The notes under the pieces: model-generated
What the model was told of the DNA's origin: nothing
The model's input: only the letters and a program-made list of their open reading frames with translations
The model's database searches: none
Shown: piece by piece, positions 38,366-51,984 of the stretch
How positions within the stretch are numbered: position 1 is the stretch's first letter
Layout of the letters: each line of letters starts with the position of its first letter
Assembly: GCA_025356095.1 (NCBI GenBank)
Contig: JANXUR010000036.1
Coordinates: 1-64,000, forward strand
Reading direction: 5' to 3'
Source: Acidobacteriaceae bacterium
GTDB lineage: Bacteria > Acidobacteriota > Terriglobia > Terriglobales > Acidobacteriaceae
Length of the DNA: 64,000 nucleotides
Made by a program: the position numbers and the translations under genes

Positions 38366-38384
38366 GTCCGAAGGAGTGCATACG

Positions 38385-40370
38385 ATGAGCGAAGCTTTCT
38401 CTCCCTCTCGCCCGCACAGCGAGCGAAAGCAGTCTCCGTGGGAGGCATTGTTGAGAGGCGTGTCCTCGGGCATCGAGAGCGCGCAGAAATATTTGTTCTC
38501 GATTCAGCACGAAGATGGTTACTGGTGCGGTGAGCTGGAAGCCGATACCACGCTTGAGTCCGACTACATCATGCTGCATACCCTGCTGGGCACGGGGAAT
38601 CCGGAACGGTTCCGCAAGGCCTGCAACTGGATTCTTGCCCACCAGAATGAAGACGGCGGTTGGCCGATTTATGAGCTGGGCCCCTCAGAAATCAGCGCCT
38701 CGGTCAAGGCGTATTTCGCACTGAAGCTGAGCGGCTACACGGCTGAGAGTCCAGCGCTGGAACGCGCCCGCCGCAAGATTGTGGCGATGGGCGGCATTAC
38801 TCGCTGCAATACCTATACCAAGATTTATCTGTGCTTCTTCGGCCAGTATGACTATGATGCCGTGCCAGCGATTCCGCCGGAGATGGTGCTGTTTCCGAAC
38901 TGGTTCTGGTTCAACATCTACGAGATGTCCTCGTGGTCGCGCGGCATTTTTATGCCGCTGGCCATCGTCTATGCCAAGAAGCCGTTCAAGAAGATCTCAC
39001 CAGAGATGGCGATTGACGAGCTCTTCGTGGGGGGCAAGGAGAAGGCGAATCTTCATCTGCACTGGGACACTCGCCGCATTGTCAGTTGGCGCAACTTCTT
39101 TCTGGCGGCAGATCGTCTGACCCATTGGCTGGAGCGCTTTCATGTGCGTCCTCTGCGTTCGGTGGCGATCAAGGCGACCGAGAAGTGGATGCTGGAGCGT
39201 TGCGAAAAGAGCGACGGCCTGGGTGCGATTTTCCCAGCCATGATGAACTCGATCATCGCGCTGCGGTGTCTTGGCTATTCGGTGGACGACCCACTCTTCA
39301 TCCGCGCCATGGATGAACTGGAGCAACTTGGAATTGAAGAGGAAGACACCTTCCGGATGCAGCCTTGCAAATCGCCGGTATGGGACTCGGTGTATGCCAT
39401 GTTCGCGTTGAGCGAGAGCGGTGTGGATCGGACGGAGCCCAAGCTGGTGCAGGCCGCCGACTGGGTGTTGAAGAAGCAGGTGACTCACCCCGGCGACTGG
39501 TGCGTCAAGAATCCTGGAGTGGCTCCTGCAGGCTGGTATTTTGAGTTCAACAATGAGTTTTATCCGGATGTGGATGACACCGCGCAGGTTTGCCTCGCGT
39601 TGAACCTGATTGACCATCCCAACGAGCGTTACCAGAGTGATAGCTTGCAGCGGGCGATTGATTGGGTGTTTTCGATGCAGTGCAAGAACGGCGGCTGGGC
39701 TGCGTTCGACAAGGACAACACCAAGATGGTCTTTCAAAATATTCCGTTCGCTGACCACAATGCCATGCTCGATCCGCCGACGGTGGACATTACGGGCCGG
39801 GTGCTGGAGATGCTGGCTGCGCGGGGCTACACCCGCGCCGACAAGCGCATGCGGCGGGCCATAGACTTCATCGTCCGCGAGCAGGAGCAAGACGGTTCGT
39901 GGTTCGGCCGTTGGGGCTGCAACTACGTTTATGGAACCATGCTGTGCCTGCGTGGTTTAGAAGCCATTGGGGTGGATCGCAACGAACCCTACATGCTGCA
40001 AGCGGTGGAGTGGCTGCGCATGGTACAGAATACCGACGGTGGCTGGGGCGAAACGCTGGGTTCGTATGACAACCCGGTGTTGCGCGGCGTAGGGCCAAGC
40101 ACAGCCTCGCAGACGGCGTGGGGCGTGATGGGGCTCGTAGCTTCGGGCGATTTGCGCAGCGAGAGTGTGCACCGCGGAGTGGAATGGCTGCTGAAGAATC
40201 AGTTGCCCAGCGGCTCGTGGAAGGAAGTTCCGTACACGGGTACTGGCTTCCCGCGGGTTTTTTACCTCAAATATCACATGTACGCGGAGTACTTTCCGTT
40301 GCTGGCGCTGGCAGCGTATCGTCGCGCCATGGGCATGGTGGCAGGCAGCGACAGCGCACGCTCGGCGTAA
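38385..40370 (+). CDS. shc: Squalene-hopene cyclase
   Basis: About 661 residues. The catalytic acid motif DVDD is at about residues 395-398 (PDVDDTAQVC), and QW-type repeats such as QNEDGGWPIYE, QCKNGGWAAF, QDGSWFGRWGCNY and QNTDGGWGETL are spread over the two alpha-barrels. It is a monotopic membrane enzyme turning squalene into hop-22(29)-ene (diploptene) and diplopterol. ATG 38385 follows AAGGAG by 8 nt; the in-frame start at 38376 overlaps that site. It is the second gene of the locus. Confidence 0.97.
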   Translation: MSEAFSPSRPHSERKQSPWEALLRGVSSGIESAQKYLFSIQHEDGYWCGELEADTTLESDYIMLHTLLGTGNPERFRKACNWILAHQNEDGGWPIYELGPSEISASVKAYFALKLSGYTAESPALERARRKIVAMGGITRCNTYTKIYLCFFGQYDYDAVPAIPPEMVLFPNWFWFNIYEMSSWSRGIFMPLAIVYAKKPFKKISPEMAIDELFVGGKEKANLHLHWDTRRIVSWRNFFLAADRLTHWLERFHVRPLRSVAIKATEKWMLERCEKSDGLGAIFPAMMNSIIALRCLGYSVDDPLFIRAMDELEQLGIEEEDTFRMQPCKSPVWDSVYAMFALSESGVDRTEPKLVQAADWVLKKQVTHPGDWCVKNPGVAPAGWYFEFNNEFYPDVDDTAQVCLALNLIDHPNERYQSDSLQRAIDWVFSMQCKNGGWAAFDKDNTKMVFQNIPFADHNAMLDPPTVDITGRVLEMLAARGYTRADKRMRRAIDFIVREQEQDGSWFGRWGCNYVYGTMLCLRGLEAIGVDRNEPYMLQAVEWLRMVQNTDGGWGETLGSYDNPVLRGVGPSTASQTAWGVMGLVASGDLRSESVHRGVEWLLKNQLPSGSWKEVPYTGTGFPRVFYLKYHMYAEYFPLLALAAYRRAMGMVAGSDSARSA

Positions 40371-41955: not shown

Positions 41956-42942
41956 GTGAAGGCGTTTGTGACGGGCGCTACGGGCTTTCTGGGTAGTCAT
42001 GTGGCCAAGGTGTTGGCCGAACAGGGCGCGTCCCTACGGTTGCTGGTGCGGGCTACCAGCGACTTGCGGAACATCGCGTCGCTCGCCGCCGAGCACGTAA
42101 CCGGAGATTTGCGGCAGCCGGATTCTCTGCGTCGCGCCATGGCTGGGTGCGATGCCGTTTTTCACGTGGCCGCCGACTACCGCCTGTGGGTGCGCGATCC
42201 GCAGGAGATGTACCGTTCGAACGTGGAAGGGACGCGCGCGATTTTGGCGGCAGCCCGCGAGGCTGGCATTGAGCGCGTCGTTTATACCAGCAGCGTGGCG
42301 ACCATGGGGTTCACTCAGGATGGACCCGTTGTGGACGAAAATTCTCCGGTGTCGCTCGCGAGTATGATTGGTCACTATAAACGGTCGAAGTTTATGGCGG
42401 AGCAAGTGGCAATTGACGCTGCCCGGGCGGGGCAGCAAGTGGTGATCGTAAATCCCACCACGCCAATCGGTGAAGGTGACCTGAAACCCACGCCCACGGG
42501 CCGCATCGTGCTGGACTTCCTGAAGCGCAAATTCCCGGCCTACGTGGATACCGGGCTGAATCTGGTGGATGCCACCGAATGTGCTCGTGGACATCTAATG
42601 GCTTATGAAAAGGCGCGCCCGGGGCAGAGGTATATTTTGGGCGGGGAAGACCTTACACTGAAAGGTTTACTGGATAAGCTGGGCGGAATAACGGGTTTAC
42701 CCTCGCCCACCGTAAAGGTGCCGTTTTTTGTGGCTTTCGGCGCCGCAGTGGTAGATGAAGTCTTTACGGGGTATTTGCGGGGCAGGGAGCCGCGAGCCAC
42801 CATGGAAGCAGTTCGGATGGGTCGGAAGAAGATGTTCGCGTCCTCTGCCAAAGCGGAGCGGGAACTGGGTTGGAAGATGGTGCCAGTGGAAGGTGCATTG
42901 CGGCGCGCTGCCGCGTGGTATCGGGGGAATGGCTATGTGTAG
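41956..42942 (+). CDS. hpnA: Hopanoid-associated NAD-dependent sugar epimerase HpnA
   Basis: 328 residues of extended short-chain dehydrogenase fold. The Rossmann motif is TGATGFLGSHVA, and the catalytic YxxxK is in GHYKRSKF. The sequence around YTSSVATMG and NPTTPIGEGD resembles HpnA. Named for its place in hopanoid clusters, its reaction is not settled. It begins with GTG immediately after the peptidase stop codon (no gap) and overlaps hpnG. These features point to tight co-translation. Confidence 0.88.
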   Translation: MKAFVTGATGFLGSHVAKVLAEQGASLRLLVRATSDLRNIASLAAEHVTGDLRQPDSLRRAMAGCDAVFHVAADYRLWVRDPQEMYRSNVEGTRAILAAAREAGIERVVYTSSVATMGFTQDGPVVDENSPVSLASMIGHYKRSKFMAEQVAIDAARAGQQVVIVNPTTPIGEGDLKPTPTGRIVLDFLKRKFPAYVDTGLNLVDATECARGHLMAYEKARPGQRYILGGEDLTLKGLLDKLGGITGLPSPTVKVPFFVAFGAAVVDEVFTGYLRGREPRATMEAVRMGRKKMFASSAKAERELGWKMVPVEGALRRAAAWYRGNGYV

Positions 42943-43642
42943 AGTTGCGATCCTTACCGCGTTGCCGATGGAGTTGCAGCCGCTGGTAAAGGGTTGGGCC
43001 CGAAGTGTGCGCCGCATGAATGACCGGGATTACACGGTCTACGAGACGCAGGAAGTGGTGGCGATGGCAGGCGGGATGGGCGCGGAAGCCGCGCGGCGGG
43101 CCACTGAAGCCATCATACAGACCTTCGCACCCCATGAAATTATCTCTGCCGGACTGTGTGGGGCGCTAGTGCCCGAGTTGAAAGTGGCGGAAGTTCTTTG
43201 GCCGCGGGTAGTAATGAACTCGCGCGACGGCACCCGGCAAGATCGCAGCGGCGGTTACGGGGTGCTGCTCAGTCATCCGGCCGTGGTTGATTGCGAGGGG
43301 AAAAAATTGTTGGCAACGCAATATGGCGCGCAGATTGTTGACATGGAGGCGTCTGCGGTGGCGAGGGGATGTTCGTGGCGGGTGGTGGACTTCCGGGCGG
43401 TGAAGTCGGTTTCAGACGACCTTCAATTTTCATTGCCGCCGATGGATCGGTTTGTGGGGTCGGAGGGTGAGTTCAAGACTTTCGCCTTTGTGCTGACAAC
43501 GCTGGTGCATCCCACCTGGTGGCTTCCGGTGATTCAACTGGGGCTTAATTCTGCGCGGGCAGCCCGCAGCCTGGCGGAAGCGCTGCGGGTGTATCTTTCC
43601 AACGTGGAAGCCGGACCGGCTCCCACCACGGAGGCAACTTAG
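42935..43642 (+). CDS. hpnG: Adenosylhopane-processing phosphorylase HpnG
   Basis: About 235 residues with a purine nucleoside phosphorylase-like fold: VAILTALPMELQPLV at the start, AGGMGAEAARRATEAI, SAGLCGALVPELKVAE, and QIVDMEASAVARGCS, which holds the base- and ribose-binding residues. In known hopanoid producers HpnG removes adenine from adenosylhopane. The start ATG 42935 follows GGGGG by seven bases and lies in the last 8 bp of hpnA (an earlier ATG lies at 42929). HpnH, its usual partner, is not in this window. Confidence 0.85.
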   Translation: MCRVAILTALPMELQPLVKGWARSVRRMNDRDYTVYETQEVVAMAGGMGAEAARRATEAIIQTFAPHEIISAGLCGALVPELKVAEVLWPRVVMNSRDGTRQDRSGGYGVLLSHPAVVDCEGKKLLATQYGAQIVDMEASAVARGCSWRVVDFRAVKSVSDDLQFSLPPMDRFVGSEGEFKTFAFVLTTLVHPTWWLPVIQLGLNSARAARSLAEALRVYLSNVEAGPAPTTEAT

Positions 43643-43645
43643 ACG

Positions 43646-44785
43646 GTGGACATGACTGATTCCACTCTTCTGGATGTAGCACCTGCGCAGCGCGTGCGGC
43701 CCATTCCTGCCACTATGCTGGCGGCGGTGTACCACGGTGTAAACGACGTGCGACTGGAAACGGTTCCGGTTCCGGTGATTGGCAGGGGCGAGATTCTGCT
43801 GCAAGTGGATACCTGTGGGATTTGCGGCACGGACTTGAAGAAGATTGCCACCGGATCCCACTCCGCACCGCGCATTTTCGGGCATGAAACGGCGGGGACA
43901 GTCGCTGCGGTGGGCGATGGAGTAGTGCGCTTCAAAGTCGGAGACCGGGGAATGGCGTTCCACCACATTCCGTGTCGCGACTGCTTCTATTGCCAGCGCA
44001 AAGTGTTTGCGCAGTGCCCCACCTACAAGAAGGTAGGATGTACGGCTGGGTTTGAGCCTAGCGGCGGCGGCTTCGCGGAATACGTTCGCGTAATGGATTG
44101 GATCGTGAGCGACGGTGGAGTGGTGCCCATTCCCGACGAAGTGAGCTTCGAGCAGGCTTGTTTCGTGGAACCGGCGAATACCTGCATCAAAGGGATTATG
44201 AGCATGGGGCTGCAAGCCGGAGATCAGGTGCTGGTGATTGGGCAAGGGCCCATCGGTATCATGCTCTCGGTTTTGGCGCGGCGGGCGGGTGCCCGTGTAA
44301 TAACTTCCGACCTTTACTCGCAAAGACTTACAATGGCTGAAAGGGAATTTGGTCTCGGCTGTCATGTGGATGCCTCGCGAGAGGATACGGTGTCGCGCGT
44401 TCGCGAATGGACGGATGGCCGTGGTGCCGATGCTGCGATTCTTGCAGTTGCCGGAAACAGCCTGATACAAGTTGCACTGGATGCAGTACGGCCGGGCGGT
44501 AAAGTGATGTTGTTTGCACAAACGCAGCGCAGCGAGGCCACCATTGACCCTTCTGCGGTTTGCGTGGACGAAAAGACGCTGCTGGGCTCCTATAGCGCGT
44601 CGGTGGATTTACAGGACGACTCTGTTCGATTTGTGTTCAGCCGAGAGATGAATCTCGAACGGCTGATCAGTCACCGTTATTCCCTCACCGATGCAGTAGA
44701 GGCTTTGCGCGTAGCGGCACATCCGCAACCGGACACACTGAAGATCGTGATCCAGCCGGGACTGACCGCGAAAGGAAGTGCTTAG
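43646..44785 (+). CDS. Zinc-dependent medium-chain dehydrogenase 1 in hopanoid operon
   Basis: 379 residues. Catalytic zinc motifs: CGICGTD and GHETAG. Structural zinc cysteines: CRDCFYCQRKVFAQC. The Rossmann motif GQGPIGIMLS follows. It resembles threonine/sorbitol-type alcohol dehydrogenases. The substrate is not evident. It sits between hpnG and hpnC, with GGAGG 11 nt before a GTG start. A plausible job is oxidoreduction of the sugar part of a ribosylhopane; this is inference only. It is followed at once by a second dehydrogenase. Confidence 0.8.
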   Translation: MDMTDSTLLDVAPAQRVRPIPATMLAAVYHGVNDVRLETVPVPVIGRGEILLQVDTCGICGTDLKKIATGSHSAPRIFGHETAGTVAAVGDGVVRFKVGDRGMAFHHIPCRDCFYCQRKVFAQCPTYKKVGCTAGFEPSGGGFAEYVRVMDWIVSDGGVVPIPDEVSFEQACFVEPANTCIKGIMSMGLQAGDQVLVIGQGPIGIMLSVLARRAGARVITSDLYSQRLTMAEREFGLGCHVDASREDTVSRVREWTDGRGADAAILAVAGNSLIQVALDAVRPGGKVMLFAQTQRSEATIDPSAVCVDEKTLLGSYSASVDLQDDSVRFVFSREMNLERLISHRYSLTDAVEALRVAAHPQPDTLKIVIQPGLTAKGSA

Positions 44786-45834
44786 TGAGTCATTCGATGA
44801 ACGCGGCAGTTCTCTACGGCAAGGAAGATGTAAAAATCGAGCGGGTACCGATTCCTCGCCTAGGTGAGGGTGAAGTTCTGATTAAGGTGCAGGTGGCCCT
44901 GACCTGCGGCACGGATTTGAAGGTGTATCGGCGCGGCTATCATGCGCGCATGATTGTGCCCCCCGCGCTCTTTGGGCATGAACTTTCCGGAGTGATTCAA
45001 TCGGTCGGCCCCAACGTGAAGGACTTCCGCAAGGGCCAGCGGGTAGTGGCGTTGAACTCAGCCCCATGTGGCCGCTGCTTTCACTGTTCCCGGCATCAGG
45101 AAAACCTTTGCGAGGATCTGCTGTTCAACAACGGAGCTTACGCCGAGTACATCAAAGTGCCCAGGCGCATCGTTGAGCGGAACATGCTGGCAATTCCCGA
45201 TGGCGTCAGCTATCAGGACGCCGCCATGGTGGAACCGCTGGCCTGCGTGGTGCGCGGATTGCATGAAACTGGCGCAGAGATCGGCGATACGGTGGTGGTC
45301 ATCGGAGCCGGGCCTATCGGACTGATGTTCATGCAGGTTGCGAAAGTTTCGGGCTGTGATGTGGTAGCAGTGGTGAAACACGATAATCAGGTGAACGCGG
45401 CCAAGCGCATGGGCGCGAGCCAGGTGGTGCAACTAGGCAAGTCCGCCGACCCGATTGAATCGATCCGCTACTTGACCCCGGGGCGTCGCGGTGCAGACGT
45501 GGTGATTGAAGCTGTGGGCCGCCCGGAAGCGTGGGAACTTGCTACCGAGATGGTGCGTAAGGGCGGTACAGTGAACTTCTTCGGCGGGCCTCCGGCGGGC
45601 ACCAAAGTGCAGCTCGACACCAACCGTCTGCATTACTCCGAGGTAACGTTGAAGGCGACCTTCCACCACACGCCGGATATGGTGCGTAAGGCGTTTGCGC
45701 TGATTGTGGAACGCAAGGTGCAGGGCACGGATTACATCACGGGCGAGGTTCCGCTTTCCCGCCTGCAGCACGTATTTTCGCAGATGCTGCAAGCTGGGCG
45801 AGAGATCAAGACCGCCATCATCCCCTGGGAATAG
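44785..45834 (+). CDS. Zinc-dependent medium-chain dehydrogenase 2 in hopanoid operon
   Basis: 349 residues. CGTDLKVYRRG and FGHELSG are the catalytic-zinc positions; CGRCFHCSRHQENLC is the structural-zinc set. GAGPIGLMFMQ is the nucleotide-binding loop. It shares the family of the previous gene but is only moderately similar, so a heteromeric pair or consecutive steps are possible. The GTG start overlaps the previous stop by one base. The gene ends 14 nt before hpnC. Confidence 0.8.
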   Translation: MSHSMNAAVLYGKEDVKIERVPIPRLGEGEVLIKVQVALTCGTDLKVYRRGYHARMIVPPALFGHELSGVIQSVGPNVKDFRKGQRVVALNSAPCGRCFHCSRHQENLCEDLLFNNGAYAEYIKVPRRIVERNMLAIPDGVSYQDAAMVEPLACVVRGLHETGAEIGDTVVVIGAGPIGLMFMQVAKVSGCDVVAVVKHDNQVNAAKRMGASQVVQLGKSADPIESIRYLTPGRRGADVVIEAVGRPEAWELATEMVRKGGTVNFFGGPPAGTKVQLDTNRLHYSEVTLKATFHHTPDMVRKAFALIVERKVQGTDYITGEVPLSRLQHVFSQMLQAGREIKTAIIPWE

Positions 45835-45848
45835 GCGGCGGACGCTAC

Positions 45849-46811
45849 ATGACCGTTTCCGCCGAACCAGTAAACCCGACCACCCAACCTGCCGCAAACG
45901 CAGCAGGTTGGGAGCGCCTGCCGCCCCAATACGCCATTCCGGCACGGCCCCCGAGTCTGGCGGAAGCGCAGCACTATTGCCGCCGATTGGCGCGCAGTCA
46001 TTACGAGAATTTTTCGGTGGCATCGTGGTTTCTACCCAAGCGCTTTGAGCGCCACTTCTACAGCGTTTATGCCTATTGCCGCATCTCCGATGATTTGGGC
46101 GATGAAGTGGGCGACCCCGCACTTTCGCTGGCGCTGCTGAAGCAATGGGAGGGCGAGCTGGATGCTTGCTACGCGGGGTTCACTCGCCATCCAGTATTCG
46201 TGGCGCTGGCTGAGACCATCCGCGAGTGTGATATTCCCAAAGCGCCGTTTGCCAATTTGCTCACGGCATTCCGGCAAGATCAGCATGTGACGCGTTACCA
46301 AACCTTTGCCGACCTGCTGCGCTATTGTGAAAACTCTGCGAACCCCGTGGGGCGGCTGGTGTTGTATGTTTGCGGCTATCGTGATGAAGAGCGGCAGCGG
46401 CTTTCGGACTACACCTGCACGGCGCTACAACTGGCCAACTTTTGGCAAGATGTGAGCGTGGACTGGCAAAAGGGCCGCGTTTATCTTCCGCTGGAAGATC
46501 TAGGCCGCTTCGGCGTAACCGAATCGCAGATTGCAGAGGGCCGATTTTCTTCCACGTTTGCTGATCTGGTGCAGTTTGAGGTGGCGCGCGCACGGCAGTG
46601 GTTCGCCAGCGGCCAGCCACTGGTTCCCATGCTCGACCGCGAGTTGGCGGTGGATATTGATCTATTCAGCCGGGGCGGTCTGGCCATTTTGGAAGCCATC
46701 AAAAAGCAAGGCTACAACGTGCTGGCGCGGCGTCCGCAAGTGAGCAAGGGCCGCAAGTTGGGCTTGCTGGCGCGTGCCGTGAGCGGTCTGGCATTGGGGA
46801 AGCTGCGATGA
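45849..46811 (+). CDS. hpnC: Hydroxysqualene synthase HpnC
   Basis: 320 residues of the squalene/phytoene synthase family. RRLARSHYENFSVASWFLP is characteristic of HpnC. The first Asp motif is ISDDLGDE and the second ANFWQDVSVDW. HpnC turns presqualene diphosphate into hydroxysqualene; HpnD acts before it and HpnE after it. The ATG overlap with hpnD (4 bases) indicates coupling. The protein lacks the extra insert seen in the next gene. Confidence 0.93.
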   Translation: MTVSAEPVNPTTQPAANAAGWERLPPQYAIPARPPSLAEAQHYCRRLARSHYENFSVASWFLPKRFERHFYSVYAYCRISDDLGDEVGDPALSLALLKQWEGELDACYAGFTRHPVFVALAETIRECDIPKAPFANLLTAFRQDQHVTRYQTFADLLRYCENSANPVGRLVLYVCGYRDEERQRLSDYTCTALQLANFWQDVSVDWQKGRVYLPLEDLGRFGVTESQIAEGRFSSTFADLVQFEVARARQWFASGQPLVPMLDRELAVDIDLFSRGGLAILEAIKKQGYNVLARRPQVSKGRKLGLLARAVSGLALGKLR

Positions 46812-47770
46812 GCGCCGCCACGGAAGTCCCCGCGCAGCCAGTGTTTTCACCCACCAAATCGCAGCTCGACTTGGCCTACCTGATGTGCAGCGGGATCGCC
46901 CGCACTGCGGCCAAGAATTTTTACTACGGCTTTATGGCACTTCCGCGCCGCAAGCGGCTGGCATTGTGTGCGGTTTACGCGTTTATGCGCAAGTGCGACG
47001 ATATTTGCGACGACCCCAAGCTTCCGCTGGAAGAGCGGCGGGTTCTGCTGGGTAAATTTCTGGCTGGATTGCATGCGGCGCAAGCAGGCGAGCCCACCGA
47101 TGATCCCATCTATCTTGCCCTAACCGATGCCCAGCGCCGGTTCAGCATTCCCGCAGAACTGCTGGATCAGTTGGCCCAAGGCACGGCGATGGATTTGGAA
47201 GAAGAAGCGGCGGGCGCGGGAGTGGTTCATCGCAGCGGGCTTCCTGTGTTCCCCGTGTTCATGACCTATCGTACTTTCGAGGACCTGTATCCATACTGCT
47301 ACCGGGTAGCGTCGGTCGTCGGGCTGGTTTGCATCAAGATATTTGGCTACCAAAACCCCGAGGCGGAGCCTCTCGCCGAGCGTACGGGAATCGCCTTCCA
47401 GTTGACGAACATTTTGCGTGACCTGAAAGAAGACGCGTTGCAGTGCCGTGTGTATCTACCGCAAGATGAATTGCTGCGCTACGGTCGCACCGCGCTTGAG
47501 CTGCGCAATGGAGCCGATGCTGTGCTATGGCGTCCGCTCATGGCGATGGAGGCGGCACGGGCGATGGAGTTCTACCGGTCCGCCGAGAAGCTTATTCCCT
47601 TGGTGAACCCCGACAGCCGCGCGGCGCTGAAGGTGCTGGTCACCATCTACCGCCGGTTGCTGGAGAAAATGCAGCAGCGCGGCTACGATGTTTTTAGTCG
47701 GCGCATACGTCTAAGTACGAATGAAAAGTTGAGCATTTTGTTGCAAGCCCTATGGCGGCGCACGGCATGA
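46808..47770 (+). CDS. hpnD: Presqualene diphosphate synthase HpnD
   Basis: 320 residues. Asp-rich motifs are KCDDICDD and TNILRDLKED. The start YYGFMALPRRKRLALCAVYAF is typical. HpnD condenses two farnesyl diphosphates into presqualene diphosphate. Compared with what I know of the family, there is an extra stretch of about 17 residues between the MDLE helix and the YRTFEDLYPYCYRVAS helix (AAGAGVVHRSGLPVFPV). The end overlaps hpnE (ATGA). Confidence 0.92.
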   Translation: MSAATEVPAQPVFSPTKSQLDLAYLMCSGIARTAAKNFYYGFMALPRRKRLALCAVYAFMRKCDDICDDPKLPLEERRVLLGKFLAGLHAAQAGEPTDDPIYLALTDAQRRFSIPAELLDQLAQGTAMDLEEEAAGAGVVHRSGLPVFPVFMTYRTFEDLYPYCYRVASVVGLVCIKIFGYQNPEAEPLAERTGIAFQLTNILRDLKEDALQCRVYLPQDELLRYGRTALELRNGADAVLWRPLMAMEAARAMEFYRSAEKLIPLVNPDSRAALKVLVTIYRRLLEKMQQRGYDVFSRRIRLSTNEKLSILLQALWRRTA

Positions 47771-49257
47771 GTGCCGCGAAGCTGGAATCTTCCCCGCTCG
47801 GCAATCCCAAGGTAGCGAGCAAGGTAGCGAGCAAGGTCGCGAGCAAGGTCGCGAGCAAGGTAGCGATCATCGGTGGCGGCCTTGCCGGTCTCGCGGCCGC
47901 ATGTGCGCTGGCTGATGCGGGTGCGAAGGTTATCCTCTACGAGCGCCGACCCTACCTTGGTGGTCGAGCTTCGTCGTACGAGCACCCCGGCACTGGCGAA
48001 GTAGTGGACAACTGCCAGCACATCCTGCTTGGCTGCTGCACCAACCTGATTGACTTCTACCGCCGCATCGGTAGCGCGGACAAGATTCGATGGTACCGGC
48101 GGCTTACATTTTTGGAGCCCGGTGGCCGGGCTTCGCAGATTGAGCCGGGCCTGCTGCCTGCGCCGATGCACAACGGATTTTCGTTCCTCACGGCGCCCAT
48201 GCTGTCGCTTGGCGATAAACTGGGCATTGCCCGCGCGCTGCTAGCTCTGATGCCGCGATTGCCCGAGGATGACGGGCGTCCGTTTTCGGAGTGGCTGCAA
48301 CGTCACGCGCAGACCGCGAACGCCGTCAAGCGTTTTTGGGAGCCGGTGCTGGTGAGCGCGCTCAACGAAGATCTCGACAAGACCTCGACTGCGTACGCAG
48401 GCCTTGTCTTCCGCGACTCCTTTTTGAAGTCGGCGCGGGCGGGGGAAATGGGTGTGCCGATGGTGCCGCTCACCGACCTCTATGCTTCTGCCGCAAGCTA
48501 CATTCAACAGCGCGGGGGCGAAGTTCGAATGCGGGCATCGGTGAGTGGCATTGTGCCAACTGCCGACGGCGTTTGCATTGCCCTATCCAGTGGCGACGAA
48601 CTCGCCGACTATGCGATTCTCGCGGCACCGTTCGGGTCGGTCGCGAAGTTGCTGCCTCCGGGACTCGGGGCCGATGATCTCCGCGCCAAGGCTGCCCACT
48701 TTGAGCCTTCGCCCATTACGGGCATCCACCTGTGGTTTGACCGCGAGATTACGGAACTCGACCACGCCGTGTTACTCGACCGCACGATCCAGTGGATGTA
48801 CCACAAGTCGCGGATTCAGCGCGGCTACCGTGAGGCAAACACAGGTGCTCCCAACGAGCCGGGTAGCTACGTCGAGTTGGTAGTCAGCGCCTCGAAGAGT
48901 TTGGTGGAAATGCCGCGGCAGGAAGTGATTGACCTGGCTCTGCGCGAGTTGGCGGAGTTTTTCCCCATCGTCCGCGAAGCCAAGCTGCTGAAAGCGACCG
49001 TCGTAAAAGAAGTTCACGCCACGTTTTCGCCATTTCCGGGCTGCGATGAATATCGCCCGGCACCGGTTACGGTGTGGCCGCGCATCTTTCTAGCTGGCGA
49101 CTGGGTGCAGACCCACTGGCCTGCCACTATGGAGGGTGCGGTGCGCAGCGGCTATTTGGCGGCGGAAGCGCTGGCCCGAGCGGCTGCCATTGCACCCGGC
49201 AGCTTCCTCGTCGCCGATCTTCCGGCGCGCGGCCTGATGCGGCTGTTCCCGGAATAG
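47767..49257 (+). CDS. hpnE: Hydroxysqualene dehydroxylase HpnE
   Basis: About 496 residues of an FAD-dependent amine-oxidase/phytoene-desaturase fold. [20 protein letters not shown], followed by [16 protein letters not shown], is the nucleotide-binding region. The C-terminus carries [22 protein letters not shown], the second FAD motif. It reduces hydroxysqualene to squalene, the substrate of Shc. The N-terminus has an unusual KVAS-repeated leader (residues 15-34) before the FAD motif. ATG at 47767 is coupled to hpnD; an alternative is 47752. It ends the locus. Confidence 0.93.
47809..47868. repeat. 12-bp tandem repeat in hpnE 5' end
   Basis: Five copies of AAGGTAGCGAGC or AAGGTCGCGAGC encode Lys-Val-Ala-Ser four times, then KVAI. 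The repeat lies just before the FAD-binding motif. The unit is divisible by three. Confidence 0.92.
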
Positions 49258-49363
49258 CTTATCCACTACCTTCCCAAGCGCTCCCTGCAAAATTGCCCGA
49301 TTCTCCGGTACGATGTTGGGTGGTAAGAATTCCATTCCAATCCCCCACTGTATCCGAGGCCCT

Positions 49364-49849
49364 ATGCCCGATTTTTCTCTGAACGTAAATGGCAGTGACC
49401 GCAAAGTAAGCGTTGCCGCCAATACCCCGCTGCTTTGGGTGTTGCGCGACACCCTGGCCATGACTGGCACCAAGTTTGGCTGCGGCGCTGGATTGTGTGG
49501 GGCCTGCTCGGTACACGTGGAAGGCGAACTCGTCCGCTCATGCTCGGTGGCGATTAGCGAAATTGGTAGCAAAAAGGTCACGACGATTGAAGGCCTTTCG
49601 GCGGACCGTTCGCATCCGCTGCAGAAAGCGTGGATTGCGGAGGATGTGCCGCAATGTGGATACTGCCAGAGCGGACAGATTATGGCCGCCGCCGCGTTGC
49701 TCGCCAAGTCGCCCTCGCCGACGGAAGAGGAATTGACGGCAGGGATGTCGCGCAATCTATGCCGCTGCGGCACCTATGACCGCATTCGCAAGGCGATTCA
49801 TCGCGCCGCCGGACAACCGGCTGCCGCGAATGGTGGAGGTGCCCAGTGA
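49364..49849 (+). CDS. iorA: 2Fe-2S subunit of isoquinoline-1-oxidoreductase-type molybdoenzyme
   Basis: About 161 residues. The ferredoxin-like N-domain has [13 protein letters not shown] plus a distal RSC, and the helical C-domain has [10 protein letters not shown] and [10 protein letters not shown], eight cysteines for two clusters. It transfers electrons for the molybdenum subunit (next gene). ATG at 49364 is chosen over 49313, as it gives the family N-terminus. The pair lies 107 nt after the hopanoid locus and seems a separate unit. The true substrate is not known; aldehydes or N-heterocycles are usual. Confidence 0.88.
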
Positions 49850-51984
49850 GCCCGGTCTCTCGTCGTGAATTGCTGCTCGGTGGTGCCGCTGCGGGTGCGG
49901 GACTCGTCATCGGAGTCTATGCTTCGAAGTTTGGTTCGGTCACCGGATTTTCAGCGGGCCATGAAGCTTTCAGCCCCAACGCTTATTTGCGCATACTGCC
50001 AGACAACACCGTGACCATTATGGTGGCTCGCTCAGAAATGGGTCAAGGCGTACGCACCGCACTGCCCATGATTCTTGCCGAAGAACTGGGGGCTGACTGG
50101 CCCACGCAGGTGAGGATTGAGCAGGCTGGCGCCAGCACGCTCTTTGGTGACCAGACGACGGGCGGCAGTTTCAGTATTCACAGCCTATGGGATCCCATGC
50201 GCAAGGCCGGGGCCCAGGCGCGCGAGATGCTGCTGGCGGCGGCAGCCCAGCGCTGGAGCGTTCCTGCCGGCGAGTGCAAGGCAGAGAAGGGAGCTGTGAG
50301 CCACGAGAAGTCGAAACGCAGCGCGACGTTTGGCGAGTTGGCCGATGCTGCTGGCCGTATGCCCGCGCCCAGCGAGGCTCCACTCAAACGGCCCGAAGAG
50401 TACAAGATCGTTGGGACTCATGCCGCGCGACTGGATACTCCCTCAAAGATCGATGGCAGTGCGCAGTTCGGCATTGACGTCCGCGTGGAAAACATGAAGC
50501 ATGCGCTGCTGGCACGCACGCCCACGATTGGCGGTAAGGTCGTCAGCTTTGATGATTCCGATGCCAAAAAAGTAGAAGGGGTGCGCCTGGTAAGCAAGAT
50601 TGGCGACTCAGCCGTAGCCGTGATTGCAGACAGCGTGTGGGCCGCCATGGAAGGACGCCGCGCACTGAAGGTCACGTGGGACGATGGCCCCAACAAGAAT
50701 CTTGGCATGGCCGCGATTTGGGACGGCTTGAAGCAGGCTTCGTCTAAAAAAGGCGCGCCGCTCTATTCCACGGGTGACTTCGCCAAGGCTTCCGGACGGA
50801 TGGTGGAAGCCACTTATCAACTGCCTTTGCTGGCCCATGCGCCAATGGAGCCGGGTAACACCACGGCAGTGGTACAGCACGGAGGCTGCGAGTTGTGGTC
50901 ACCCACGCAGGTGCCTCAGGACGTGCGTGACTCGGTTGCGATTGCGCTTGGCCTGCCCTCTGACAAGGTGAAAGTGAACGTCACGCTGCTGGGAGGGGGG
51001 TTCGGTCGTCGGCTGGAACACGACTATGCCGTGGAAGCCGCACTGGTGGCAAACAGTATGCCCGGCACGGCAGTGCAAACGTTATGGACGCGCGAAGACG
51101 ATATGCAGCACAGTCCTTATCGCCCCATGAGCCTGCACGTGATGAGTGCCAAACTCGACGGCGCTGGCTGGCCTGTGGCCTTTCAACACAAGATTATCGG
51201 GCCGGGCATCAGCACGCAGAAGGGATTTCCCTTGATGGGCGGTCTGGATCCGGATTTAGCTTCGGAAGCGGCGTTCCTGTATCCGATTCCCAACGTAACG
51301 ATTGAGCATGTTGCTACAGAAACGCCGGTGCCGCTCGGTTGGCTGCGCTCAGTGTGGGGCATGCAGATTGGCCTAGCGACGGAGGCGTTTCTTGATGAAG
51401 TAGCTGCCGCCGGAGGCAAAGACCCTCTGGATCTGCGGCTGCATTTGCTGCGCGAAGATCGCGAAATTCATATTGGGGACGACCATTGGCAGACCGCCCG
51501 TTTGCGCGAGGTGATCAAGCTGGCTGCGGAAAAATCGGGCTGGGGCAAGCCGCTGCCAGCGGGAGTTTATCGCGGCATCGCGTGCTGGGCTTGCTTTAGT
51601 ACCTATTCTGCGGAAGTGGTAGAGCTTTCGATGGAGGGTGATTTACCCAAAGTGCACCGCGTAGTCGCCGCGATTGATTGCGGCACTGTGGTCAATCCCA
51701 ATATTGTGGATCAGCAGATGCACAGCGGCGTTGTCTTTGGGATGTCTGCGGCGCTGCGCGGCAAAATTACAATTGAGGGTGGCCGCGTTCAGCAAGCCAA
51801 CTTCGACGACTACGAACCGCTGCGTATGAACGAATTCCCTAAGATTGAGGCCTATTGGGTGAAGAGTGGTGAGGCACCGACCGGCATCGGCGAGCCTACT
51901 GTGCCACCGCTGGCTCCGGCGCTGCTGAACGCCATGTACGCAGCCACTAAGAAGCGGGTGCGGGCCGTGCCGGTTATGGGGTAA
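49846..51984 (+). CDS. iorB: Molybdopterin-binding subunit, isoquinoline/aldehyde oxidoreductase type
   Basis: 712 residues. The N-terminus begins [19 protein letters not shown], a twin-arginine signal (periplasmic location likely). Molybdopterin-binding motifs typical of the xanthine-dehydrogenase family include [13 protein letters not shown] and the C-terminal [15 protein letters not shown]. It starts with GTG overlapping iorA by four bases. No XdhC-like chaperone is nearby. The enzyme hydroxylates an aromatic heterocycle or oxidises an aldehyde. Confidence 0.88.

What the first reader, a model, noticed from the sequence alone, without database searches (positions are those of the whole stretch)
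43646..45834. Two zinc dehydrogenases as candidates for the ribosylhopane-to-bacteriohopanetetrol step
Both genes lie between hpnG, which acts on the adenosylhopane side chain, and hpnC, with a one-base overlap between them. To my knowledge the reductase turning ring-opened ribosylhopane into bacteriohopanetetrol lacks a firm assignment. Medium-chain zinc alcohol dehydrogenases reduce aldehydes to alcohols, so the chemistry fits. The pair may act as one enzyme or in successive steps.
Basis: inference. Interest (0 to 1): 0.75.

Follow-up and report, generated by a model that had tools for sequence, protein, structure and literature searches.

The report
Tandem dehydrogenases of hopanoid lipid synthesis
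Two neighbouring zinc dehydrogenase genes in a soil-bacterium lipid operon travel with the genes for hopanoid (bacterial sterol-like) side chains across two phyla, so they are good but unproven candidates for the still missing enzyme that makes bacteriohopanetetrol.

Summary
Two intact medium-chain zinc dehydrogenases (ADH1 379 aa, ADH2 349 aa) share one base at 44785 and sit between hpnG and hpnC in an acidobacterial hopanoid operon. The neighbours were already published as 'ug1' and 'ug2' (PMC5462960), without a proposed reaction. New here: (1) all 80 nearest database loci carry ADH1 directly followed by ADH2. (2) ADH1 tracks hpnH: 23 of 24 Acidobacteriota genomes with ADH1, and 14 of 17 Armatimonadota, where the pair lies away from shc-hpnH-hpnG. 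Acidobacteriota with hpnC but no hpnH nearly all lack it (1 of 34). (3) ADH1 always has an acidic residue at the coenzyme site (NAD type; 106/106) and ADH2 always lysine, arginine or asparagine (NADP type; 100/100). So the pair is very probably dedicated to C35 hopanoids. That it makes BHT fits the chemistry and the gap still stated in 2025, but is unproven. Many lineages with hpnH, hpnG and hpnA lack the pair, so another enzyme must work there. Opposite coenzymes equally suggest side-chain inversion. I put BHT formation by ADH2 (NADPH type) at about 0.4.

The parts
43646..44785 (+). ADH1: zinc medium-chain dehydrogenase, NAD-type signature (D222); matches the position of 'ug1' of PMC5462960
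   Evidence: Pfam PF08240/PF00107; Zn ligands C57, H80, E81 and structural C110, C113, C116, C124 invariant in 106 orthologs, D/E at 222 in 106/106; AlphaFold pLDDT 92
44785..45834 (+). ADH2: zinc medium-chain dehydrogenase, NADP-type signature (K198); matches the position of 'ug2' of PMC5462960
   Evidence: Pfam; structural Cys, H65, E66 invariant and K/R/N at 198 in 100/100; catalytic Cys41 is Asp in 28/100; AlphaFold pLDDT 93.6
42935..43642 (+). hpnG-like nucleoside phosphorylase/nucleosidase (adenosylhopane to ribosylhopane)
   Evidence: TIGR03468 5e-25, 88 bits, below cut-off 187; overlaps hpnA by 8 bases
41956..42942 (+). hpnA, hopanoid-associated SDR; rival candidate for the BHT step
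   Evidence: TIGR03466 485.6 bits, over cut-off
45849..46811 (+). hpnC
   Evidence: TIGR03464 346.5 bits, over cut-off
46808..47770 (+). hpnD-like presqualene diphosphate synthase
   Evidence: TIGR03465 225.9 bits, best hit, below cut-off 278.6
47752..49257 (+). hpnE
   Evidence: TIGR03467 490.9 bits, over cut-off
38376..40370 (+). shc, squalene-hopene cyclase
   Evidence: TIGR01507 762.5 bits

Best explanation
ADH1-ADH2 is a dedicated two-enzyme redox module of the C35 hopanoid side-chain pathway in Terriglobia-type Acidobacteriota and in part of the Armatimonadota. HpnH adds 5'-deoxyadenosine to hopene and HpnG removes adenine, giving ribosylhopane (established pathway). The open-chain aldehyde is then reduced at C35 to bacteriohopanetetrol, most likely by ADH2, which has the NADPH-type coenzyme site (inferred). 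ADH1, with the NAD-type site, most likely oxidises a hydroxyl of the same polyol chain, either as a tailoring or inversion step or as the reverse of the reduction (inferred, weaker). Shown here: intact active sites, tandem conservation, co-occurrence with hpnH, and opposite coenzyme signatures. Not shown: substrate, direction and product.
For: Tandem in 80/80 nearest loci, with hpnG before and hpnC after in nearly all that have room. Acidobacteriota: 23 of 24 ADH1 genomes have hpnH against 17 of 125 others (Fisher 3e-15); the 4 families with ADH1 all have hpnH among 11 of about 61 families (about 6e-4, my count). Among hpnC genomes, ADH1 in 23 of 28 with hpnH but 1 of 34 without. Armatimonadota: 14 of 17 against 16 of 134 (Fisher 4e-9), while other MDR paralogs show no link to hpnH (7/56 against 9/78, my count). 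There the hpn locus is shc-hpnH-hpnA-hpnG and the pair lies elsewhere. The only genes recurring beside it are hpnC, hpnD and hpnE. Coenzyme residue: D/E in 106/106 ADH1, K/R/N in 100/100 ADH2. Nearest solved relatives are ketose reductase, xylitol and sorbitol dehydrogenases. BHT enzyme still unassigned.
Against: Seventeen of 40 hpnH-bearing Acidobacteriota genomes and 16 of 30 Armatimonadota lack ADH1, and hpn loci of pair-less acidobacterial lineages show no MDR gene nearby. Chloracidobacterium makes BHPs and lacks ug2 (PMC5462960). One reduction needs one enzyme, yet two are nearly always kept. Polyol dehydrogenases usually act on secondary alcohols (general knowledge). In the f26 (gp18/Bryobacterales) loci examined, hpnG is not beside the pair. 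Fisher tests ignore shared ancestry.
Confidence: 0.4

Rival explanations
1. Redox inversion or tailoring: ADH1 oxidises one side-chain hydroxyl with NAD+ and ADH2 reduces the ketone with NADPH from the other face, giving an epimer or another modified bacteriohopanepolyol. BHT itself is made by another enzyme.
For: Nearly always two genes, in tandem, with opposite coenzyme signatures in two phyla. Polyol-dehydrogenase branch prefers secondary alcohols (general knowledge). Absence from many hpnH/hpnG lineages suits a lineage-specific extra step. Periodate/borohydride analysis used on acidobacteria (PMC5462960) cleaves the chain, so it does not report the full stereochemistry.
Against: No unusual BHT stereochemistry is known to me from these bacteria; coenzyme type is predicted from one residue.
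Confidence: 0.3
2. HpnA, the SDR beside HpnH/HpnG, reduces ribosylhopane to BHT, and the ADH pair does something else.
For: HpnA sits next to HpnH in most loci with and without the pair, in both phyla. Proposed in PMC5462960.
Against: PMC5462960 cites evidence that hpnA is not essential for BHT in Burkholderia cenocepacia and that BHT producers such as Rhodopseudomonas lack it; no HpnA hit near hpnH in G053 (L089).
Confidence: 0.15
3. The pair serves squalene supply (hpnCDE) rather than the side chain.
For: ADH2 directly precedes hpnC; in Armatimonadota the pair adjoins hpnCDE in 6 loci and hpnG in none of those read.
Against: 33 of 34 hpnC genomes without hpnH lack ADH1; squalene synthesis by HpnCDE needs no such enzyme (Pan et al. 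2015, as cited in PMC5462960).
Confidence: 0.07
4. General alcohol/polyol metabolism genes that happen to sit in the operon.
For: Generic MDR fold; the more distant tandem relatives in G117 and G070 lie in genomes without detected hpnH.
Against: The ADH1-like members of those pairs fall outside the supported ADH1 clade; association with hpnH persists when unlinked.
Confidence: 0.08

Closest known systems
'ug1' and 'ug2' of acidobacterial hopanoid clusters (Sinninghe Damste et al. 2017, PMC5462960)
   Same: Position: ug1 after hpnA-hpnG, ug2 (Zn-binding alcohol dehydrogenase, about 350 aa) before hpnC. These are almost certainly the same genes (locus tags not compared).
   Different: That paper gave no reaction, no coenzyme analysis, no tandem-pair concept and no occurrence outside Acidobacteria; it suggested hpnA for the BHT step. 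Main text only was read.
Polyol dehydrogenase branch of MDR: ketose reductase 1e3j, xylitol dehydrogenase 7y9p, sorbitol dehydrogenase 1pl6, threonine dehydrogenase 2dfv
   Same: Fold (TM-score about 0.77-0.89), catalytic and structural zinc sites, about 25-30% identity.
   Different: Below every NCBIfam equivalog cut-off; own clades tied to hpn genes.
Ribosylhopane reductase activity of Methylobacterium organophilum extracts (Bodlenner et al. 2015, title as cited in PMC12583986)
   Same: The reaction proposed for ADH2.
   Different: Gene unknown; the paper itself was not held.

Membership tests
Zinc medium-chain dehydrogenase/reductase (MDR) superfamily | ADH_N and ADH_zinc_N domains | tested here: met
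   Pfam over cut-off for both; structure matches
Zinc medium-chain dehydrogenase/reductase (MDR) superfamily | Catalytic Zn ligands and four structural Cys | tested here: met
   Invariant in 106 ADH1; in ADH2 all but catalytic Cys41, which is Asp in 28/100; Cys in the window
Threonine 3-dehydrogenase, scyllo-inosose 3-dehydrogenase and other named NCBIfam equivalogs | Score over curated cut-off | tested here: not met
   Best 152 of 450 needed (ADH1), 182 of 458 needed (ADH2)
ug1/ug2 of PMC5462960 | Zn alcohol dehydrogenase between hpnG and hpnC in acidobacterial clusters | tested here: met
   sequences of that paper not compared
Ribosylhopane reductase (BHT synthase) | Converts ribosylhopane to BHT with NAD(P)H | not testable with these tools
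   Needs enzyme assay
Ribosylhopane reductase (BHT synthase) | Co-occurs with hpnH/hpnG | tested here: inconclusive
   Strong one way (ADH1 implies hpnH, 37 of 41 genomes), weak the other (37 of 70 hpnH genomes have ADH1)
Opposite-coenzyme redox pair (inversion) | One NAD-type and one NADP-type partner, conserved | tested here: met
   by signature residue only, not by assay

The most novel reading that the evidence does not exclude
A conserved NAD-type/NADPH-type dehydrogenase pair inverts or otherwise remodels the hydroxyls of the C35 hopanoid side chain while also making BHT. It would be a previously unrecognised two-enzyme step shared by Acidobacteriota and Armatimonadota, yielding BHP stereoisomers specific to pair bearers.
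Probability: 0.2. Interest if true: 0.75.

Novelty: new member of a known kind. Interest (0 to 1): 0.5.

Why it matters
BHT and its derivatives are parents of the most widely used bacterial molecular fossils, and the enzyme that makes BHT was still unassigned in 2025 (PMC12583986). The pair gives two concrete genes, a coenzyme prediction for each, and a labelled-coenzyme test. If the pair sets stereochemistry, it would also give a genetic marker for BHT isomers from soil Acidobacteriota and Armatimonadota.

Tried and rejected
Neighbours of the divergent tandem pairs in G046, G057, G117 and G070 were read for an ancestral function: no shared theme. Genes after hpnG in pair-less lineages were checked for a replacement reductase: luciferase-like monooxygenase, PLP enzyme, FMN dehydrogenase, squalene synthase, glycosyltransferase; no MDR and no single substitute. 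Fold search gave only generic MDR relatives, no substrate hint. The split of ADH1 (with hpnG) from ADH2 (with hpnC) in genera g3 and g6 first looked like functional separation; other lineages keep the pair together, so it looks like rearrangement at one break point. My first reading that f26 lacks hpnG was dropped: hpnG-like nucleosidases lie on other contigs but cannot be told from MTA or futalosine nucleosidases by model scores. G007 is not an independent loss test, because the whole hpnA-to-hpnE block is missing. The careful tree did not finish; the quick tree is used. No Proteobacteria were searched for the pair directly: the one genome-contig scan kept only its 80 best hits.

Full report
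WHAT IS THERE. The two ORFs are real and intact. ADH1 runs 43646-44785 and ADH2 44785-45834, both GTG starts on the + strand, sharing one base. The run is tight: hpnA and hpnG overlap by 8 bases, hpnG-ADH1 gap 3, ADH1/ADH2 overlap 1, ADH2-hpnC gap 14, then hpnD and hpnE overlapping. ispH, shc and an M28 peptidase gene lie upstream on the same strand. HpnH is on another contig. HpnG is recognised but scores below its model's cut-off; so does every Acidobacteriota match surveyed.

WHAT THE PROTEINS ARE. Both are zinc MDR enzymes of the polyol-dehydrogenase branch. AlphaFold models are confident (pLDDT 92 and 94), and the nearest solved structures include butanediol dehydrogenase, ketose reductase, xylitol, sorbitol and threonine dehydrogenases. 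No NCBIfam equivalog cut-off is reached. Across 106 ADH1 and 100 ADH2 orthologs the zinc sites are kept, except that the catalytic Cys41 of ADH2 is Asp in 28 sequences. At the end of the second Rossmann strand ADH1 always has Asp or Glu, as human sorbitol dehydrogenase has Asp. ADH2 always has Lys, Arg or Asn there, usually followed by Arg. The aligned NADP(H) ketose reductase also lacks the acid. By this standard signature ADH1 is NAD-type and ADH2 NADP-type. This is a prediction from sequence.

CONSERVATION OF THE PAIR. A scan of GTDB species genomes kept the best 80 of 537 confirmed relatives; all 80 have ADH1 followed at once by ADH2. Most are Acidiferrales (subdivision 2), with the order shc-hpnH-hpnA-hpnG-ADH1-ADH2-hpnC-hpnD-hpnE. 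A few are Armatimonadota. In a quick tree the hopanoid-associated ADH1 form a supported clade of 32 rows. ADH2 together with more distant relatives form a supported clade of 37 rows.

CO-OCCURRENCE. In 149 Acidobacteriota genomes, ADH1 orthologs (50% identity or more, with a clear gap to 37%) are in 24; 23 of these have hpnH over cut-off. HpnH is in 40. Of 28 genomes with hpnC and hpnH, 23 have ADH1. Of 34 with hpnC alone, 1 does (a 93%-complete MAG). Of 12 with hpnH alone, none does. In 151 Armatimonadota genomes, ADH1 orthologs (44% or more) are in 17, of which 14 have hpnH and 13 shc, against 16 of 134 others with hpnH. There shc-hpnH-hpnA-hpnG form one locus in most genomes read and the pair lies on other contigs or far away. 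Six of the pair loci adjoin hpnCDE, and these are the only genes that recur beside it. This is association without linkage to the side-chain genes in a second phylum. The Fisher values (3e-15 and 4e-9) overstate independence; at family level in Acidobacteriota the chance is about 6e-4 by my count.

WHAT IS NOT EXPLAINED. Lineages with hpnH, hpnA and hpnG but no pair exist in Acidobacteriota, and none of the loci read has an MDR gene beside these genes; 16 Armatimonadota genomes with hpnH lack ADH1 too. If they make BHT, another enzyme does it. Chloracidobacterium makes BHPs and lacks ug2 (PMC5462960). So the pair cannot be the general answer to the missing BHT step; at most it is the answer for its own lineages.

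MECHANISM. Ribosylhopane in its open form is an aldehyde at C35; BHT needs one hydride there. ADH2, the NADPH-type partner, is the better reductase candidate. That the Methylobacterium extract activity used NADPH is from my memory; the paper was not held. ADH1, NAD-type, would more naturally oxidise. The near-constant presence of both, with opposite coenzymes, fits either two separate steps or an oxidation-reduction inversion of one hydroxyl. I cannot choose between these by sequence.

NOVELTY. PMC5462960 already reported the two neighbours as unknown genes ug1 and ug2. My literature searches found no proposal that they make BHT, in an open-licence library only. New here are the occurrence in Armatimonadota, the tandem-pair unit, unlinked co-occurrence with hpnH, and the coenzyme contrast.

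VERDICT. Observation confirmed. Dedicated hopanoid role about 0.85. BHT formation by the pair, most likely ADH2, about 0.4.

Noticed in passing
L151:7351-8085, L163:7225-8031 and at least 15 other Acidiferrales loci (L154, L158, L161, L162, L169, L171-L176, L178-L181): Between shc and hpnA lies a 245-270 aa HpnH-like gene; in the two read in full the radical-SAM CxxxCxxC motif is missing. Its retention across species suggests a changed function; whether another intact hpnH exists in these genomes was not checked.
   Followed up: partly
ADH2 of L128, L130, L143, L151 and about 24 others: Catalytic zinc ligand Cys41 of ADH2 is replaced by Asp in one Acidiferrales group (28 of 100 sequences), which includes nearly all loci with the shortened HpnH.
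   Followed up: partly
L088 and L113, after hpnG: In pair-less family f44 hpnG is followed by a luciferase-like monooxygenase gene and, in L113, a PLP-dependent decarboxylase-type gene: possible other side-chain enzymes.
   Followed up: no
L245-L255: Armatimonadota hpn loci keep an ispH-like gene (about 31% identical to window ispH) between hpnA and hpnG in 10 of 11 loci.
   Followed up: no
L092 (G007:C102): A same-family genome keeps ispH-shc-hpnH but the whole hpnA-hpnG-ADH1-ADH2-hpnCDE block is missing there.
   Followed up: partly
window 42935-43642: HpnG of the window and of all surveyed Acidobacteriota scores far below the TIGR03468 cut-off, so automatic annotation is likely to miss it.
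   Followed up: partly
window 49313-51984: A [2Fe-2S] subunit and a molybdopterin-binding oxidoreductase subunit follow hpnE on the same strand.
   Followed up: no
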